DNA of 43,426 bases from assembly GCA_900314355.1 (NCBI GenBank), contig OMUY01000099.1, positions 1 to 43,426 on the forward strand. Reading direction: 5' to 3'. The DNA comes from an uncultured Eubacteriales bacterium. GTDB lineage: Bacteria; Bacillota; Clostridia; Oscillospirales; Acutalibacteraceae. Of the stretch, positions 21,013-30,589 are shown one piece after another. Below the pieces are notes generated by a model. The model was not told where the DNA came from, made no database searches, and worked only from the letters and a program-made list of their open reading frames with translations. The stretch's first letter is position 1. Every line of letters begins with the position of its first letter. Made by a program: the position numbers and the translations under genes.

Positions 21013-21618
21013 TTATTTACTTACCTTGATAACTTTAAGTCTTGAAAAATCTTCCCTTTCCTTCTCTTCAAGGGCGCCGGAAATAAATTTCTCGTCCTTT
21101 TCAAGTTTGGGAATCATTATATTTCCGAGGGCGTTAGTTCTCTTTTTAGTCTTGTTTATTGCGTCCGCCAACCTGCAGGCGGTGTTTTCGACGACGGCGA
21201 GTCTTATTGTGAGCTGCTTTAATTCATTGAATTTCTCTGCCGCCTCGTCAAGATTTTCGCATGTGTCCGGGATAGAATAAAATATCCTGTTTTCCCTGTT
21301 TCCGCCGCTTGCCATAGGTATTTCTACGCCCATGAACGACCTCGATGATATTTCAAGAGTGTCGTCTGCCGGAACAGACTCCGCCGCGCTGCTGCAGTCG
21401 CCCATTTTGACTGTCGCAAGCATCATGGCGTCGTAAGCTTCCTTGTATTTTTCCGCTATTTGGGACTGTATGCTTCTCGCCTCGTCCATAGACTCCATTA
21501 CTTCCTTGACAAGAATTTTTCTTTTCCTGTCCATAAGGTCGTATCCGGTGCGGGCAAGCTTTAAAGTCCTGCGCGTATTCATCAAATTGTTTTTGGTTGG
21601 AAATACTGTCTGAGCCAT
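21013..21618 (-). CDS. atpD: V-type ATP synthase subunit D
   Basis: The 201-residue central-stalk subunit, equivalent to gamma in F-type enzymes, that turns inside the A3B3 hexamer. Family features: N-terminal FPTKNNLMNTRRTLKLARTGYDLMDRKRKILV, then a long helix, and the C-terminal RRTNALGNIMIPKL-like segment (KKRTNALGNIMIPKLEKD) that completes the coiled coil. Length normal. It is the last gene of the operon, 37 bases after subunit B. ATG start. Confidence 0.95.
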   Translation of the reverse strand: MAQTVFPTKNNLMNTRRTLKLARTGYDLMDRKRKILVKEVMESMDEARSIQSQIAEKYKEAYDAMMLATVKMGDCSSAAESVPADDTLEISSRSFMGVEIPMASGGNRENRIFYSIPDTCENLDEAAEKFNELKQLTIRLAVVENTACRLADAINKTKKRTNALGNIMIPKLEKDEKFISGALEEKEREDFSRLKVIKVSK

Positions 21619-21655: not shown

Positions 21656-23029
21656 TTATTTCTTATCGTAATATTTCACAAGGTACTCTTCCTTTACCCT
21701 GTCAAGAGAATTTCTCGGAAGAAGTCTCAAAAGAGACCAGCCGAGATCCAAAGTCTCGTCGATTGATCTCGATTCGTTCTCGCCCTGCGTTAAAAATTCC
21801 GATTCAAATTTTTTGCCGAATTCAAGGTACTCCTTGTCCTCGTCGGAAAGCTCGTCCTCACCTATAACCGACGCGAGAGATCTTACATCCTGAACGTTCG
21901 AATAGCAGGAGAAGAGCTGATCGGCAAGCTGCTTGTGATCTTCTCTCGTATAGCCTTTTCCTATGCCGTCTTTCATAAGTCTTGAAAGTGATGTCAGAAC
22001 GTTCACCGGAGGATAAACGCCTTTCATCTCAAGGTTTCTGTCAAGAACTATCTGACCTTCTGTGATAAATCCCGTGAGGTCGGGAATGGGATGCGTGATA
22101 TCGTCGTTAGGCATGGTGAGTATAGGTATCTGAGTTACGGAGCCGTCCGCGCCGTCTATTATTCCTGCTCTCTCATAGATAGACGCAAGGTCGGAATAAA
22201 GGTAGCCCGGGAAACCTTTTCTCGCGGGAATTTCGCCTTTTGTCGACGAAAATTCTCTCAGCGCCTCGCAGTAAGACGTCATATCGGTCAAAATTACAAG
22301 CACATTCATATTAAGCTCGAACGCAAGATATTCCGCCGCCGTAAGAGCGCACTTTGGAGTTATAAGTCTTTCGACGATAGGGTCGTTTGAAAGATTTAAA
22401 AACATCGTGACTCTGTCCATTACGTTTGCCTCTTCAAACGAGCGTCTGAAATAATCGGCAACATCGTTTTTGACTCCCATCGCGGCGAAAACTATTCCGA
22501 ATTTTGAGTTGTCCGCGACTGACGCCTGTCTTACAATCTGAACGGCAAGTTCGTTGTGCTTCATGCCGGAGCCCGAGAATATGGGCAGTTTCTGACCTCT
22601 GATAAGAGTTGAAAGCGCGTCTATGGATGATATGCCCGTATGAATGTAGTTTCTGGGATAAACTCTTTTTACGGGATTGATAGGCGAACCGTTTATATCC
22701 GCTTTCTTCACCGGATAAACATCTCCGAGACCGTCTTTAGGTCTGCCCATTCCGTCGAAAACCCTGCCTACTATTTCGGGAGAAAGCGCAAGCTCCATAG
22801 GTCTGCCCTTCAGTTCGGTCATCGCGTTTGAGACTGATATTTCCTTAGTGCCTTCAAATACCTGTATGAATGCTTTGTCTCCTTCGATTTTGACTATTCT
22901 TCCGACTCTTTTCTCGCCGGACGAAAGTCTTAATTCAACAAGCTCCTCGTTGAAACAGTCGCTGACGCCCTCGAGCGCCACAAGAGAACCGTTAACCTCG
23001 GAAAGTCCTATATATTGTTTAATCATCAT
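21656..23029 (-). CDS. atpB: V-type ATP synthase subunit B
   Basis: The 457-residue non-catalytic nucleotide-binding subunit of the A3B3 head. Seen: [58 protein letters not shown] in place of a canonical P-loop, [47 protein letters not shown], and [18 protein letters not shown]. All are typical of the B family. It lies 21 bases after subunit A. The ATG at 23029 is preceded by AAGGGTGCA; an adjacent ATG at 23026 is equally possible. Confidence 0.96.
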
Positions 23030-25448: not shown

Positions 25449-25751
25449 TCAGCCTATTCCGACTGCCTGAGAAACATATCTCGTGATAGCGTCGGATTTA
25501 AAATCGCCGCCGCTGTCGGGAATTTCGGAAATAAGCGGAACAGAATATCTTCTCTTGTAATCGTCGACAATTCCGGCGCGCCTTTCGTAAAGTCCCATTG
25601 TGACGAGGATAATTCCGACGTCTTTGTCGTTTACGGCTTTTTCAAAAGCCGCTATTGTCTCCTCTTTTTTAGTCACAAGCGTATACTCTATTCCAGCGAG
25701 TCTTAGTCCCACGCAGGCGTCCGCATTGTCTGAAATAAGATGAATTTTCAT
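25449..25751 (-). CDS. atpF: V-type ATP synthase subunit F
   Basis: A 100-residue Rossmann-like subunit that sits on the central stalk with D and regulates rotation. Seen: KIHLISDNADACVGLRLAGIEY, a mid-domain DVGIILVTMGLYER, and YSVPLISEIPDS near the end, all typical of the F family. ATG start with GAGGA; eight bases downstream of its stop the next ribosome site begins. Confidence 0.93.
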   Translation of the reverse strand: MKIHLISDNADACVGLRLAGIEYTLVTKKEETIAAFEKAVNDKDVGIILVTMGLYERRAGIVDDYKRRYSVPLISEIPDSGGDFKSDAITRYVSQAVGIG

Positions 25752-25781: not shown

Positions 25782-26267
25782 TTAAATCTTGTTCAGTATA
25801 AGTATTGAAATAACTACGCCGTAAAGAGCTATTGACTCACCCAATGCGACGAAGATAAGCGAACGTCCGAATGATGAAGGATTTTCGCTTGCCGCGGCTA
25901 TTGCTGCGGGAGCGCCGGCCGCAACTGCAATACCGCCGCCTATGCCCGATACGGATGTAACGAGAGCCGCCGCGAGAAGTCCGAGACCTTTTGAATTATC
26001 AGTCTGAGAAGAGGAATCTTCCGAAGTGTCGGCAGTCTGAGAAGAAGAAGCCGCGGTATCCGATGAGTCGGCCTTTGTGTCGAGAGCGGAAACCGAAAAC
26101 GCCATAGTGCATGTGACGGCCATAACGAGCGCGAACGTTACAAGATTTCTCGCGATTACCTTCTTTGCGGATACGCCTTTCCGCGAATCCTTGGAACCTT
26201 TGTAGAACGTTATTCCCATTACAACGGCGGGAAGAAGAACAATAAGAGCGTAAATTACGTATTTCAT
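25782..26267 (-). CDS. atpK: V-type ATP synthase subunit K (membrane rotor), atypical N-terminus
   Basis: A 161-residue rotor-ring subunit. The C-terminal 95-161 is a standard c-type hairpin: GLGLLAAALVTSVSGIGGGIAVAAGAP, polar loop ENPSSFG, and ALGESIALYG with ion-carrying Glu144. The first 94 residues are odd: a hydrophobic helix (3-22), a second one (42-62) ending AFSVSALD like a signal-peptidase site, and a Ser/Asp/Thr/Gln-rich linker (63-94). Helix 1 of the hairpin has no Gln at the place used for Na+ binding in Na+-type rings, which favours H+ coupling (inference). ATG with GGAGG. Confidence 0.9.
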   Translation of the reverse strand: MKYVIYALIVLLPAVVMGITFYKGSKDSRKGVSAKKVIARNLVTFALVMAVTCTMAFSVSALDTKADSSDTAASSSQTADTSEDSSSQTDNSKGLGLLAAALVTSVSGIGGGIAVAAGAPAAIAAASENPSSFGRSLIFVALGESIALYGVVISILILNKI

Positions 26268-26325: not shown

Positions 26326-29166
26326 TCAGTTTTTCGCCGCGGCAAGTTCGGAAGCGGGTACGAATTTCTTTCCGTTTCCGCTGTAACATCTTGAGAACAT
26401 TTCATAATATTCAAGTCTGAGAGCCTGTATTCCGGAAAGAAGACCTTCAAGGAATATTACGAGTATGTTTCCGAGAATAATCACTATTATATTTTCGCTT
26501 GCTCCGGCGAGTGAAAAGACAACCATCATCATGCCGGCGTGCACAAGAACGAAAGCTCCTACTCGCAGGAAAGAAACGGTATTTGAGAAATATGACAATA
26601 TAACTTCAAACAGCTCGAAAAACGCCTGCATGAAATAATTGCCCCAGCTGTCCGGTTTCCAGTTCGGAACCTTGTCCACTATGCCGATAAGTATCTCCTG
26701 AATATACAATATTACGGCAGTCACAGCCATTACGGGAGCCACGACAGACGTCGGGAGAAGTTTTGTTCCGGACATAAATCCGTATACGAGTTCAACGCCG
26801 CAGAGGTAAAGAATAACGCCTGCCACACCGTTTGTCGAAAAAAGCGCCGCGCCTATTTTTTTCTCTTTTAAATTCGCGTAGATATTTACGAGCATCGACA
26901 CTATCATAAGCGCAACTCCCGTGAATATGGCGAATATCAAAACTCCGTTAATCGAATCCATTACGGAAACAGGCTTGCCGCTCATTCCGATGGCTTTGTA
27001 CACGGGGTCAAGCATATGCTCGTAACCGAATACCGAACCGAAGACAAATCCCGCAACCATTGACGCGCATCCGCAAGGAATCAATATATGCCCGAGTCCC
27101 GATCTCTTCTTTTTCCAAAGGTAAAGTCCGGCAATAAGAAGGACGAGACCCTGACCGAGATCTCCGAACATTATTCCGAAAAGCACGGTATAAGATATCG
27201 CCATAAAAGACGTGATGTCTATGGAGCCGTATGACGGTACACCGTACATATTGACGAAATACTCATAAGGTCTCGTCAAAGGATTGTTTCTGAGCTTAGT
27301 CGGCGTGACAAGGCTTCCCTTTTTTGTATGGTCTCCCGACTCCATGCCCTCAAATCCGCCGAACGCCTTGAGAAGCACCTCCGTCTCGGCCTTTTCTCTT
27401 TTCGACATTCTCTTTTTAGTCATGAGTTTTCCGTTAACGAGATTTACCTCATGCCTTTCACTCCACAGCGTTCTGAGATCTGTAAGTATGGAATAGGACA
27501 GTAGAATATCTCTTTCGTTCGATTTCCAGAAACTTACTATATCGTTTTTCTCGGCGGCGATTTTCTCAAGTTCCCTGCTGTCTTTTTCAATGACCTCTTT
27601 TACAGTGCCGCTCTGGGCGTCGAAATGATATTTTTTGAAATAATGATCTTCAAAATAGAGGTCTGCCTGCAGGGCGTAGACATTGGGAGCCGCATATACA
27701 ACCCATGCGTTTCTGTCGTCGGAGTCGCACACGCTGAAAGCTATATGCTCTTTATCAAGCGTCTGATTTACATCTTCAAGCGTCTTTTTCGGAAGTCTGC
27801 CGAACCTTACCTCGACAAATTCCATTGAAAGAAGTTCGCCGAGATCCGTATCGAGACTTTCAAAATGCTTAAGCCTTCTGATTGTCTTTTTCAGATTCGC
27901 TTCTTTGAGCTTCAAGTCTTTTCTGAATCTTGATTCGTCGGCTATTTTCTGTCTAAGACCGGACGGAACGCCGTTGGGGACGTCATCGCCCGAAAGATAA
28001 GCCGAAAGGAAGTCGAGATACTGTTTAGTGGGTTTTCTTGATGTTCCCAAAATATTGAAAAGCTTGTCGGACGAAAGTTCAACATCTGCCTGATGTGAAA
28101 GGTGTTCTATGTCTCTTACGGACGATTCATAGGGGAATGGGTCTGATGCCGTATTCACGGTCATGGATTTTTCGGGATCTTTTATTGTAAACTCGATTAG
28201 CTGAACTTTTCCGAGGAGAGATTTCGCATCATCCGAATTTTTCTTCGGTACCCAGCCTATCAGGTTGAAACTGTCATTTTTGACGGCGGCGTAAGATCTG
28301 AAAGACCATATCTTGTCAAGGTCGAGGAGGATGGAACAATCAGACTTGAGTATCTCGGAATTTTTAGCCCAGAATGAATTCAGCTCGTTTATTTTACCGT
28401 TGAGACGGTCAAGCTCAGTTTGCGTATCGGCTATATTTTTCTTAATGTTGTTTATATCGCCGTCGATATCGAGCTCCTCGAAAAACAGAGTTTCAAATAC
28501 TTTTTTCGTATTTTCCTCTGTATCGGTAGAAGCGAAAATACCCCAGTAATTATCCTCGTCTGATGACAGCGTGCGGAAAATGTAATTATTCTCTTTATTA
28601 AAATAATAAAGTTTTACCATCGAGGATTTGGGAAGATAGCCGAAATGAAGGCCGGTGCGTCCGTTCGCTGACATTTCTTTCATCGACGCCGCAATCGAAT
28701 TTACGTTGACATCGAGGTTGTCGAAATGATTCAGATTGTCAAGTCTGTGTTTCAGATACCTCTGCCTGTCGGAATACTTTGCCGATTTTTCGATAAAATC
28801 GTCTATTTTGGGTTTAAGCCCGGAGATAAACAGATTGATGTCGGAATTGTCGAAATCGGTTTCCTGAAGGTATTTCATCAAAGTCTGGCAGTAAGTTTCC
28901 GTCGCCTTTTTTCCGGTGCCGAAAACATTTGTAAGCTTTGCGCCGTCAATCGGATCGCCGGCGGACTTAGCAGTTTCCTCAATGCTGTTTATAACCGCCG
29001 TAAAAGGCGAAGGAGACGACGCCTGATTATATCCCTCGTCGCGCGTCAGAATGTCGATTGTGTTTTCTATCGCAATGTAGTCAACGCTGAGAATACGCAT
29101 CAACGTCTCGTTCAATTTCTGAACGGGACCCGTTATTCTGACGACTTTCATTTTTTCTATTGCCAA
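26326..29166 (-). CDS. atpI: V-type ATP synthase subunit I (a-type stator), with duplicated cytoplasmic arm
   Basis: A 946-residue stator subunit carrying the proton half-channels; relatives are about 650. The membrane half (648-946) is normal: FGIMFGDLGQGL, and SFLRVGAFVLVHAG with the essential Arg. The cytoplasmic half is doubled: 78-290 and 368-571 align (LTNVFGT/LFNILGT, LNHFDNLD/LKHFESLD, FGYLPK/FGRLPK, SFWAKN/SFWKSN, SILLDLDKIWSFR/SILTDLRTLWSER). The normal join from GWVPKK (304-309) to PTKLRNN (622-628) is split by the second copy. TTG start with GGTGA eight bases upstream gives the usual MAIEKMK opening. Confidence 0.93.
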   Translation of the reverse strand: MAIEKMKVVRITGPVQKLNETLMRILSVDYIAIENTIDILTRDEGYNQASSPSPFTAVINSIEETAKSAGDPIDGAKLTNVFGTGKKATETYCQTLMKYLQETDFDNSDINLFISGLKPKIDDFIEKSAKYSDRQRYLKHRLDNLNHFDNLDVNVNSIAASMKEMSANGRTGLHFGYLPKSSMVKLYYFNKENNYIFRTLSSDEDNYWGIFASTDTEENTKKVFETLFFEELDIDGDINNIKKNIADTQTELDRLNGKINELNSFWAKNSEILKSDCSILLDLDKIWSFRSYAAVKNDSFNLIGWVPKKNSDDAKSLLGKVQLIEFTIKDPEKSMTVNTASDPFPYESSVRDIEHLSHQADVELSSDKLFNILGTSRKPTKQYLDFLSAYLSGDDVPNGVPSGLRQKIADESRFRKDLKLKEANLKKTIRRLKHFESLDTDLGELLSMEFVEVRFGRLPKKTLEDVNQTLDKEHIAFSVCDSDDRNAWVVYAAPNVYALQADLYFEDHYFKKYHFDAQSGTVKEVIEKDSRELEKIAAEKNDIVSFWKSNERDILLSYSILTDLRTLWSERHEVNLVNGKLMTKKRMSKREKAETEVLLKAFGGFEGMESGDHTKKGSLVTPTKLRNNPLTRPYEYFVNMYGVPSYGSIDITSFMAISYTVLFGIMFGDLGQGLVLLIAGLYLWKKKRSGLGHILIPCGCASMVAGFVFGSVFGYEHMLDPVYKAIGMSGKPVSVMDSINGVLIFAIFTGVALMIVSMLVNIYANLKEKKIGAALFSTNGVAGVILYLCGVELVYGFMSGTKLLPTSVVAPVMAVTAVILYIQEILIGIVDKVPNWKPDSWGNYFMQAFFELFEVILSYFSNTVSFLRVGAFVLVHAGMMMVVFSLAGASENIIVIILGNILVIFLEGLLSGIQALRLEYYEMFSRCYSGNGKKFVPASELAAAKN

Positions 29167-29238: not shown

Positions 29239-30276
29239 TTACGAATAAACACCCGTGAGCAGCTTTTCCGCCTGTTCGCGCGGAAGATTATATCTTACCG
29301 ATTCTATCGCCCTGATGATATTTTTAATCTCTATTCCGCTCAGTCCGACATATGCGAAAACAACCATATCGGGGTCTGTGGAATAAGTCATGGCGTCGCG
29401 GAGTATTCGATAAAGGTAATTTTCCGACGCCGACTCGTAAGATTCTCCGTCTTTGTCCGCCAAATCTTTGTAGACCGTAGCGGAAAGAATGCCGTCAAGC
29501 TCGGATATATCGCCCGCGTTAGCCATTTTCGCTATTGTCTCGGGCTTAAGCCTCGACAGCCTTTCCGGACTTATATCAAAAGTGTACGTGCTTGAACCGG
29601 AAATTCTCTTAAGACGCTTGAAAATGCCGATTAGCTCTATATCGTTTTCCGTTTTGTACAGGTTCAAAAATTTTTTGTTCTTTCCGAAACGCTTTTTCGT
29701 GAGAGACAAATATTCTTTGTCAAGAAAATCGGAAAACACGGAATATACAGCCGTCATGCTCTCGGTTGCGATATATTTATCAACGGCGTCTTCGACTGAA
29801 TCTTTATAAGGAGTTTTTGATGTAAGTTCAATAAGCTGTTCGGGATTTTTAATCTCGGCGAGCTTGTAGAGGTCAAGCCGCGATGTTCCGGCGAAATAGA
29901 CGGGAAGAGAAGCTATATACGATTCGGATTTTGTCTTGAGCGAACTCAGAGCCGTTCTGATCTGAGCAAGGTCGTTTTCGGTGACGAAATACTCGTAAAA
30001 TCTGTCGCCGGCAGGCTCCATATATCTTTTTATTTTCACCATATCCGTATAAAGCTTAAGCTGAAGCTGATTTTCAAGCCTGCGCCTTGAAATGTTAAGC
30101 TCCATGACAGGCTTTAAAACATCCGAATATGCCTCTGTATTTTCGAGCTTTTCGGCGGCGAGCGATACGGACGGGCAGGAAAGAAGTTCATCGAAATCCT
30201 TGTTTTCAAGACGTTTTGAGTACATTATCCTGCACAGCGCGTATACGGAATTTGCCGCAAATAATGCTTTAGCCAT
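29239..30276 (-). CDS. atpC: V-type ATP synthase subunit C
   Basis: A 345-residue subunit of the d/AC39 family, the socket joining the central stalk to the rotor ring. It is mostly helical with the threefold repeated pattern of the family; the ending LSGIEIKNIIRAIESVRYNLPREQAEKLL closely fits the conserved C-terminus. Its ATG overlaps the end of the H/G subunit gene by eight bases. In Enterococcus-type operons this gene lies after E; here it precedes I. Confidence 0.92.
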   Translation of the reverse strand: MAKALFAANSVYALCRIMYSKRLENKDFDELLSCPSVSLAAEKLENTEAYSDVLKPVMELNISRRRLENQLQLKLYTDMVKIKRYMEPAGDRFYEYFVTENDLAQIRTALSSLKTKSESYIASLPVYFAGTSRLDLYKLAEIKNPEQLIELTSKTPYKDSVEDAVDKYIATESMTAVYSVFSDFLDKEYLSLTKKRFGKNKKFLNLYKTENDIELIGIFKRLKRISGSSTYTFDISPERLSRLKPETIAKMANAGDISELDGILSATVYKDLADKDGESYESASENYLYRILRDAMTYSTDPDMVVFAYVGLSGIEIKNIIRAIESVRYNLPREQAEKLLTGVYS

Positions 30277-30589
30277 CGGCGTCTACTGTCCTTTTAAAAA
30301 TCGTTTCAACCCATTTTTCATGGTTTGTCTTGTCCAAACGTTCAAATTTTTCTTTTAAATTCTGAACTGTTTTTTCTTGCTGCTCGATTTCCCGACGCTC
30401 AATATCCTGTCTCTCTTTTTTCCTTTTTGCTATTTCATCTCTCGCGTCGGAATCGGCCTTTCTGATTATGCTTTCCTTTTCGGAATTTACTTTTTCGACT
30501 GCCGACTGTTTAAGCTCTTCGACTTCTTTAATCTGTTTTTGAGCATTTTTGTCGGCGTCGACTATCTGTTTGAGAAAATCGTTTGTCAT
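30269..30589 (-). CDS. V-type ATP synthase subunit H/G (peripheral stalk coiled coil)
   Basis: A 106-residue almost entirely charged, alpha-helical protein (AQKQIKEVEELKQSAVEKVNSEKESIIRKADSDA) that would form a coiled coil with subunit E in the peripheral stalk. Assignment rests on composition, size and place as first gene of the operon. ATG start with a modest AGGCGG site. The leader and promoter lie at 30590-30712. Confidence 0.82.
   Translation of the reverse strand: MTNDFLKQIVDADKNAQKQIKEVEELKQSAVEKVNSEKESIIRKADSDARDEIAKRKKERQDIERREIEQQEKTVQNLKEKFERLDKTNHEKWVETIFKRTVDADG

What the first reader, a model, noticed from the sequence alone, without database searches (positions are those of the whole stretch)
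26326..29166. V-ATPase I subunit with a tandem duplicated cytoplasmic arm
The protein is 946 residues, about 300 more than usual. Residues 78-290 and 368-571 align with each other over their full length with several matching anchors (LNHFDNLD/LKHFESLD, FGYLPK/FGRLPK, SFWAKN/SFWKSN, SILLDLDKIWSFR/SILTDLRTLWSER) at an offset of about 280 residues. The single-copy order GWVP then PTKLRNN is split by the second copy. A stator arm with two coiled-coil/lobe units could touch additional peripheral stalks or change the geometry of the motor. Copies are well diverged, so the duplication is old.
Basis: partly seen in the sequence, partly recalled or inferred. Interest (0 to 1): 0.75.

Follow-up and report, generated by a model that had tools for sequence, protein, structure and literature searches.

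The report
Rotary ATPase with second stator arm
The stator subunit of a bacterial rotary ATPase carries a second copy of the arm that holds the outer stalks, and related bacteria have gained spare arms or arm tips several times, which suggests that a three-stalk motor, as in our own cells, evolved separately in bacteria.

Summary
The minus-strand gene 26326-29166 encodes a 946-aa V/A-ATPase subunit I with two tandem arms (coiled coil plus distal lobe) before one membrane domain; the arm profiles match at E 7e-60. Of 11 genomes of the genus, 7 have the gene, all double-armed. Trees place one duplication at the base of the genus, after the split from a single-arm sister. Eleven loci carry an arm-only gene (311-347 aa) between C and I in the same operon; one origin of these is rejected. 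Other I subunits carry an extra distal lobe, in one group inside the membrane domain. The copies compared look selected. One arm-only protein models as a complete arm; its best hits are Thermus subunit I, then eukaryotic subunit a, with subunit C lower. Best explanation, partly inferred: the extra lobe docks a third E/G stalk, as subunit C does in eukaryotes. Stalk binding could not be tested. Known enzyme, new stator architecture.

The parts
26326..29166 (-). V/A-ATPase subunit I gene, 946 aa, two N-terminal arms plus one membrane domain
   Evidence: (PF01496, 78.6 bits, cut-off 30.7)
29032..29166 (-). residues 1-45: first half of the membrane-proximal lobe (present once)
   Evidence: secondary structure; profile matches of the 7 second arms start at positions 43-50
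28291..29013 (-). residues 52-292: arm A (coiled coil, distal lobe, coiled coil)
28471..28650 (-). residues 173-232: distal lobe A
28180..28287 (-). residues 294-329: second half of proximal lobe A with the GWVP motif
27454..28140 (-). residues 343-571: arm B, the second copy
27628..27816 (-). residues 451-513: distal lobe B
27352..27447 (-). residues 574-605: degenerate second half-lobe of arm B (GW[IV]P lost)
27307..27351 (-). residues 606-620: linker, with pLDDT under 50 at 610-616
26353..27306 (-). residues 621-938: membrane domain, conserved, with SFLRVGAF and ALRLEYYE
30269..30589 (-). subunit G/H (106 aa)
   Evidence: weak, NF006256 E 5.5e-4; by position and profile
29239..30276 (-). 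subunit C/d (AC39 type, 345 aa)
   Evidence: PF01992
25782..26267 (-). proteolipid subunit K, 161 aa with a long N-terminal extension
25449..25751 (-). subunit F
   Evidence: PF01990
24850..25440 (-). subunit E (stalk), single copy in the operon
   Evidence: PF01991
23051..24805 (-). subunit A (catalytic)
21656..23029 (-). subunit B
21013..21618 (-). subunit D (rotor)

Best explanation
SHOWN: this is subunit I of a complete bacterial V/A-type rotary ATPase operon, whose cytoplasmic stator arm was duplicated in tandem once, at the base of its genus, and both copies have been kept. INFERRED: the second arm is an extra collar element. In Thermus the single arm has two alpha/beta lobes, one holding the proximal and one the distal E/G stalk. 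Here arm A keeps both lobes and arm B keeps only a complete distal lobe, giving three complete docking lobes on one membrane subunit. I propose that distal lobe B anchors a third E/G stalk to the third B-subunit site of V1 (identical in sequence, as the operon has one B gene), giving a three-stalk stator that counters the distortion caused by two stalks on a three-fold head. Related bacteria would reach the same end with a separate arm protein, or with an extra distal lobe built into subunit I. Functionally this parallels eukaryotic subunit C, a soluble protein of similar fold that holds the third stalk, but it evolved separately, by copying the bacterium's own arm.
For: (1) Duplication. (2) All 7 genomes of the genus in which the gene was found (of 11 searched) have two arms, at 46-50% identity. 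(3) Selection: pN/pS 0.23-0.37 for arm A and 0.25-0.36 for arm B in 6 of 6 pairs among 4 of the 7 fused genes, with dS saturated in 11 of 12 comparisons; dN/dS 0.16-0.26 in the 5 pairs tried among 6 of the 11 arm-only genes. (4) Separate gains: the 14 fused arms form one clade (100/97) with a single-arm sister (100/99); arm-only genes elsewhere need at least 3 further changes, and one origin is rejected, p-AU 1e-62 (the group was named by architecture, but after an earlier tree had been seen). (5) Convergence on the distal lobe: arm-only genes in 11 loci; extra distal lobe in L027, L021, L120, L199 and L193-L196. (6) Lobe count: the window model has one complete proximal and two distal lobes; by profile matches the lobe-duplicated forms have the same number, L021's extra one being partial; the arm-only form modelled has both lobes, so with its I subunit two plus two, like aN plus C. 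(7) Fold: the arm-only protein matches Thermus subunit I (TM 0.73), then eukaryotic a, with subunit C lower (1u7l E 1.4e-6); the window model matches subunit a/I chains best and reaches three subunit C chains. (8) Literature, passages read: two lobes bind proximal and distal EG (PMC7367684); two stalks distort the three-fold V1 (PMC5758568); EG3 is held by C (PMC6131620); C and aN have similar folds (PMC3899036); V/A-ATPases have two stalks and lack extra collar subunits (PMC9244403).
Against: No direct evidence for a third stalk. No operon examined shows a second E or G gene, which fits either two or three stalks. Distal lobe B keeps fewer family-conserved residues than A (0.42 against 0.62 of cells) and has the longer stem (0.70 against 0.18), so its partner may differ. 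The match to subunit C is modest (TM 0.30-0.47, 8-11% identity; from rank 33). The model gives no confidence for the relative placement of the two arms, and no complex could be modelled. Most single-arm relatives evidently manage without the extra part. The gene was not found in 4 of 11 genomes of the genus.
Confidence: 0.5

Rival explanations
1. Brace without a third stalk: arm B packs against arm A or against the two existing stalks and stiffens or re-angles the collar, leaving two E/G stalks.
For: No second E or G gene in the operons, as in single-arm relatives; arm B has lost half of its proximal lobe and the GW[IV]P motif while its returning helix is its best kept part (0.86 of conserved cells), which would suit a coiled-coil brace.
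Against: In other lineages the extra piece is a distal lobe without a second coiled coil (L193-L196 in the membrane domain, L199, partial in L021), which could not brace in this way.
Confidence: 0.22
2. Brake or regulator: the extra lobe clamps the rotor socket (subunit C/d) or binds a cytosolic partner, silencing the pump when V1 detaches.
For: In Thermus the distal lobe of the single arm contacts subunit d in isolated Vo and blocks rotation (PMC7367684, passages), so a lobe copy could specialise in this. The longer stem of arm B would fit a new partner.
Against: Repeated separate gains in several architectures, all keeping the lobe, fit reuse of an existing docking function more simply; PMC9244403 (passage) says V/A-ATPases do not appear to use reversible dissociation.
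Confidence: 0.15
3. Neutral or redundant duplication with no function of its own.
For: Rare: in the family sample (398 genomes, 214 with a match) the listed hits show one arm-only gene, G166; only genus g1 gave full-length double-arm matches (both lists were cut off).
Against: Ratios; two arms in all 7 genomes that have the gene; invariant stretches in arm B such as R21-L26 of the A5 numbering; repeated gains.
Confidence: 0.07
4. Assembly or gene-calling artefact.
For: The genomes are fragmented assemblies.
Against: Same architecture in 7 different genomes at 46-50% identity, with the two arms forming separate clades.
Confidence: 0.005

Closest known systems
Subunit I/a of Thermus thermophilus V/A-ATPase (6r0z, 6qum chain N) and the crystal structure of a subunit I arm, 3rrk
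   Same: Arm fold (two alpha/beta lobes joined by a coiled coil), membrane domain
   Different: One arm only, two E/G stalks; the window has a second coiled coil and distal lobe
Eukaryotic V-ATPase subunit C (Vma5, 1u7l)
   Same: A second, arm-like collar element besides aN; similar fold (PMC3899036, passage)
   Different: No sequence family match found; C is a separate soluble protein, whereas the window's copy is fused; stalk binding is known for C and untested here
Single-arm subunit I of L081 (664 aa; same BLAST figures as L046/G140, so probably the same protein), sister of the double-arm genus in the trees
   Same: Same operon order G-C-I-K-F-E-A-B-D
   Different: One arm
Enterococcus hirae V-ATPase subunit I (8wci chain P)
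   Same: Best PDB sequence match, over the membrane domain (E 9e-20)
   Different: Two stalks (PMC6199243, passages); that it has a single arm is recalled

Membership tests
V/A-ATPase subunit I (PF01496) | Match to the family model over the curated cut-off | tested here: met
   78.6 bits, cut-off 30.7; nine NCBIfam subunit I models match, each below its equivalog cut-off
V/A-ATPase subunit I (PF01496) | Membrane domain with the two arginine motifs (their role in proton transfer is recalled) | tested here: met
   R868 and R917 align with the eukaryotic subunit a motifs; invariant in 7 of 7
V/A-ATPase subunit I (PF01496) | One N-terminal arm with a proximal and a distal lobe | tested here: not met
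   Two arms. I treat this as an architectural variant: the model match, membrane motifs and operon place it in the family
V/A-ATPase subunit I (PF01496) | Gene lies in a complete V/A-ATPase operon | tested here: met
Eukaryotic V-ATPase subunit C | Sequence membership of a subunit C family | tested here: not met
   No subunit C family of Pfam among the hits of the window protein or of three arm-only proteins
Eukaryotic V-ATPase subunit C | Two globular domains joined by a coiled coil, no membrane domain | tested here: inconclusive
   Met by the arm-only protein modelled, and no membrane-domain match in the 11 arm-only genes; in the window the second arm is fused to a membrane domain and lacks half of its proximal lobe
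Eukaryotic V-ATPase subunit C | Binds the third E/G stalk | not testable with these tools
   No complex prediction on hand

The most novel reading that the evidence does not exclude
Bacteria of this order have built three-stalk rotary ATPases several times over, each time by copying their own E/G-docking arm or its distal lobe: fused as a second arm, released as a separate arm subunit, inserted within the arm, or inserted into the membrane domain. This would be a convergent re-invention of the eukaryotic aN plus C collar, and would break the rule that stalk number (one, two, three) separates F, A and V types.
Probability: 0.45. Interest if true: 0.88.

Novelty: new variant of a known kind. Interest (0 to 1): 0.77.

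Why it matters
Stalk number is used to classify rotary ATPases, and V/A-ATPases are described as having two stalks and no extra collar subunits (PMC6131620 and PMC9244403, passages). Here several lineages carry the gene for an extra collar element, in separately gained architectures. That offers a natural experiment on what a third stalk does to coupling and symmetry, and a model for how eukaryotic subunit C, which is said to have a fold like the arm but not its sequence (PMC3899036, passage), could have arisen. The three arm-only proteins scanned have no Pfam subunit I match, and the five scanned match NCBIfam subunit I models only far below cut-off, so they are likely to be overlooked in annotation.

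Tried and rejected
Rejected: an artefact (same architecture in 7 genomes); the idea that single-arm relatives correspond to copy B alone (one search matched them to the second half, probably because that copy is contiguous with the membrane domain; the tree puts both copies in one clade with single-arm sisters outside); a single ancient origin of all arm-only genes (AU test). In one search the arm-only group counted as one change only because the single arms were left unlabelled; labels them. Gene conversion between an arm-only gene and its own I gene could mimic a recent origin and is not excluded.

Not duplications although long: G222 (689 aa), and G740, G588, G648, G684, G606, G609 and G779 (upstream extensions or ordinary lengths); G910, G722, G240, G168 and G179 are I genes cut by contig ends. 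For G166, one search printed an open frame of 1033 aa that I could not reproduce: searches show a 347-aa arm gene and a 657-aa I gene separated by stops. G447 (769-aa frame) was not examined. The lobe tree has few columns, so whether L027, L199 and L193-L196 are one gain or up to three is left open, and L120's extra lobe is a long branch beside the double-arm clade. L148 and L187 are near-identical and may be one species.

Limits: the second structure job went to an arm-only protein, so no single-arm control was folded; the library with aligned ranges (pdb_via) was not available; the relative placement of the arms could not be judged. The first ORF script took the wrong strand for some loci and is superseded. 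An earlier count gave the second BLASTP range as about 400-571; one search shows 346-571. Literature: searches in the held library listed no paper that I could recognise, by titles and starts of abstracts, as describing a duplicated I arm or a three-stalk bacterial V-ATPase; subscription papers are mostly missing from that library.

Full report
OBSERVATION. The gene is on the minus strand (26326-29166; 946 aa; TTG start). Arms A and B match each other by BLASTP (E 1e-21, 27% identity), by a single-arm profile (domain E 1.2e-51 and 2.7e-34) and by profile-profile comparison (269 columns, E 7.1e-60). The membrane domain is an ordinary subunit I domain (PF01496; best PDB sequence match E. hirae subunit I over residues 621-939).

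CONTEXT. The operon reads G-C-I-K-F-E-A-B-D and is complete. It lies beside ORFs that read as ribosomal proteins L11, L1, L10 and L7/L12 (30901-33348, same strand; recognised by eye, not tested). The genome (2.2 Mb, 86% complete) holds a second V-type operon with a 665-aa I on another contig; no F-type a subunit was found in it (PF00119). In the genus, 7 of 11 genomes have the gene, all 7 with two arms; 4 show no match at E 0.001.

WHEN. Trees of 58 arms (quick; careful) and of 56 arms (careful) agree: the seven A arms form one clade, the seven B arms another, and the two together form a clade (100/97) whose sister is the single arm of L046 (664 aa; probably the same protein as L081; 100/99). 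One duplication at the base of the genus explains this. B has the longer stem (0.70 against 0.18).

WHAT CHANGED. On 63 columns conserved in at least 75% of 52 single arms (52 of the 79 loci passed my length and boundary filters), arm A keeps 0.98 of the second half of the proximal lobe and 0.62 of the distal lobe; arm B keeps none of the first proximal half (absent), 0.27 of the second half, 0.42 of the distal lobe and 0.86 of the returning helix. The AlphaFold2 model (64 aligned rows, pLDDT 82.3, pTM 0.63) shows two arms, both halves of a proximal lobe A, distal lobes A and B, a reduced half-lobe B and a poorly predicted linker (610-616) before the membrane domain.

WIDER PATTERN. A scan of genome contigs with the double-arm alignment found 185 relatives and kept the best, 79 loci (two peptide patterns, so a sample biased to near relatives). 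With L059 (G166) and three more genomes of the order sample (L187-L189) that makes 11 arm-only loci, each with order C-arm-I. In the order sample (394 genomes, 89 with a hit at 1e-15 or better) 4 genomes show an arm-only gene: G166, G877, G842, G878; among its long I frames, G762, G898, G661, G708 and G804 have an extra lobe, as has G050 (L021). In the family sample (398 genomes, 214 with a hit) the listed hits include one arm-only gene, G166 (list cut off). Extra distal lobes in all: L027 (773 aa), L021 (754 aa, partial lobe), L120, L199 (730 aa) and L193-L196 (769-770 aa; lobe at residues about 562-644 within the membrane domain). That the loop holding it faces the cytoplasm is recalled topology, not a result. 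In a phylum sample (159 genomes at least 90% complete apart from the window's, 58 with a match) the matches listed as over the Pfam cut-off had frames of 594-705 aa, apart from the window (969, stop to stop), one unexamined 769-aa frame (G447) and fragments of 123-259 aa.

INDEPENDENCE. With 11 arm-only genes labelled, well-supported branches force at least 3 changes, and the tree holding them as one clade is rejected (133 log units, p-AU 1e-62; the group was defined by architecture but tested after an earlier tree). Together with the fused duplication, separate from these in the same tree, this is at least four gains of a second arm, if changes are read as gains and gene conversion is set aside. 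The lobe duplications would add three to five more, which cannot resolve.

SELECTION. Arm-only genes: dN/dS 0.16-0.26 in the 5 pairs tried (6 of 11 genes), higher than their own I arm (0.05-0.16). Fused arms: pN/pS 0.23-0.37 (A) and 0.25-0.36 (B) in 6 of 6 pairs among 4 of 7 genes, with dS saturated in 11 of 12 comparisons. The copies compared do not look like decaying pseudogenes.

STRUCTURE. The arm-only protein of L091 models as a complete arm (pLDDT 90.3, pTM 0.76). Foldseek ranks Thermus subunit I first (TM 0.73), then eukaryotic subunit a and 3rrk, with eukaryotic subunit C from rank 33 (7uzf_G E 1.1e-6; 1u7l E 1.4e-6; TM 0.30-0.47). I identify chains G, O and C of the V-ATPase entries as subunit C from recall; 1u7l is named so in the output. 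The window model matches subunit a and I chains best (9brd_a, 9brb_a, 6r0z_N) and reaches chain G of three V-ATPase entries at ranks 47-50.

MECHANISM. In Thermus the two lobes of the single arm hold the proximal and distal E/G stalks (PMC7367684, passages), and two stalks on a three-fold head are said to distort the enzyme (PMC5758568, passages). In yeast the third stalk is held by subunit C (PMC6131620, section 11 and passages), whose fold resembles aN (PMC3899036, passages). V1 has three B subunits, so in Thermus-like enzymes one stalk site is unused (inference). The window's model has one complete proximal and two distal lobes; by profile matches so do the lobe-duplicated forms (L021's extra lobe only partial); arm-only forms have two plus two, like a plus C (one modelled). 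The simplest common denominator is an extra distal, stalk-docking lobe, hence a third stalk. This last step is inference and untested. Rivals are a brace or a brake.

VERDICT. Real, conserved within the genus and paralleled elsewhere; a member of a known family with a new stator architecture. Third-stalk reading about even odds.

Noticed in passing
window 25782-26267 (minus): The proteolipid K has about 90 extra N-terminal residues (two predicted hydrophobic segments and an acidic Ser/Thr-rich stretch) before the usual two-helix hairpin; 79 proteins of the collected operons (itself included) match it, and 9 of the 10 rows printed show four hydrophobic segments.
   Followed up: partly
L061 (G000:C75:20000-38000): A second V-type ATPase operon of the same genome with order G-I-K-E-C-F-A-B-D (read from ORFs by eye), 162-aa K and 665-aa I; no F-type a subunit found in the genome.
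   Followed up: partly
L193-L196 (769-770-aa I genes, residues about 562-644): A copy of the distal lobe sits inside the membrane domain of subunit I in four genomes of one genus of another family.
   Followed up: partly
L120:4744-7119: 791-aa I in which an extra lobe appears nested inside the original distal lobe, so one lobe interrupts the other.
   Followed up: no
G004, G007, G008, G010 (same genus): Four of 11 genomes of the genus show no match to this subunit at E 0.001, nor a match of it to a second subunit I; two of the four are over 90% complete.
   Followed up: no
L074 (G003): The second-type subunit I of one species has a 721-aa frame; its arm match begins at residue 60, perhaps a misplaced start.
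   Followed up: no
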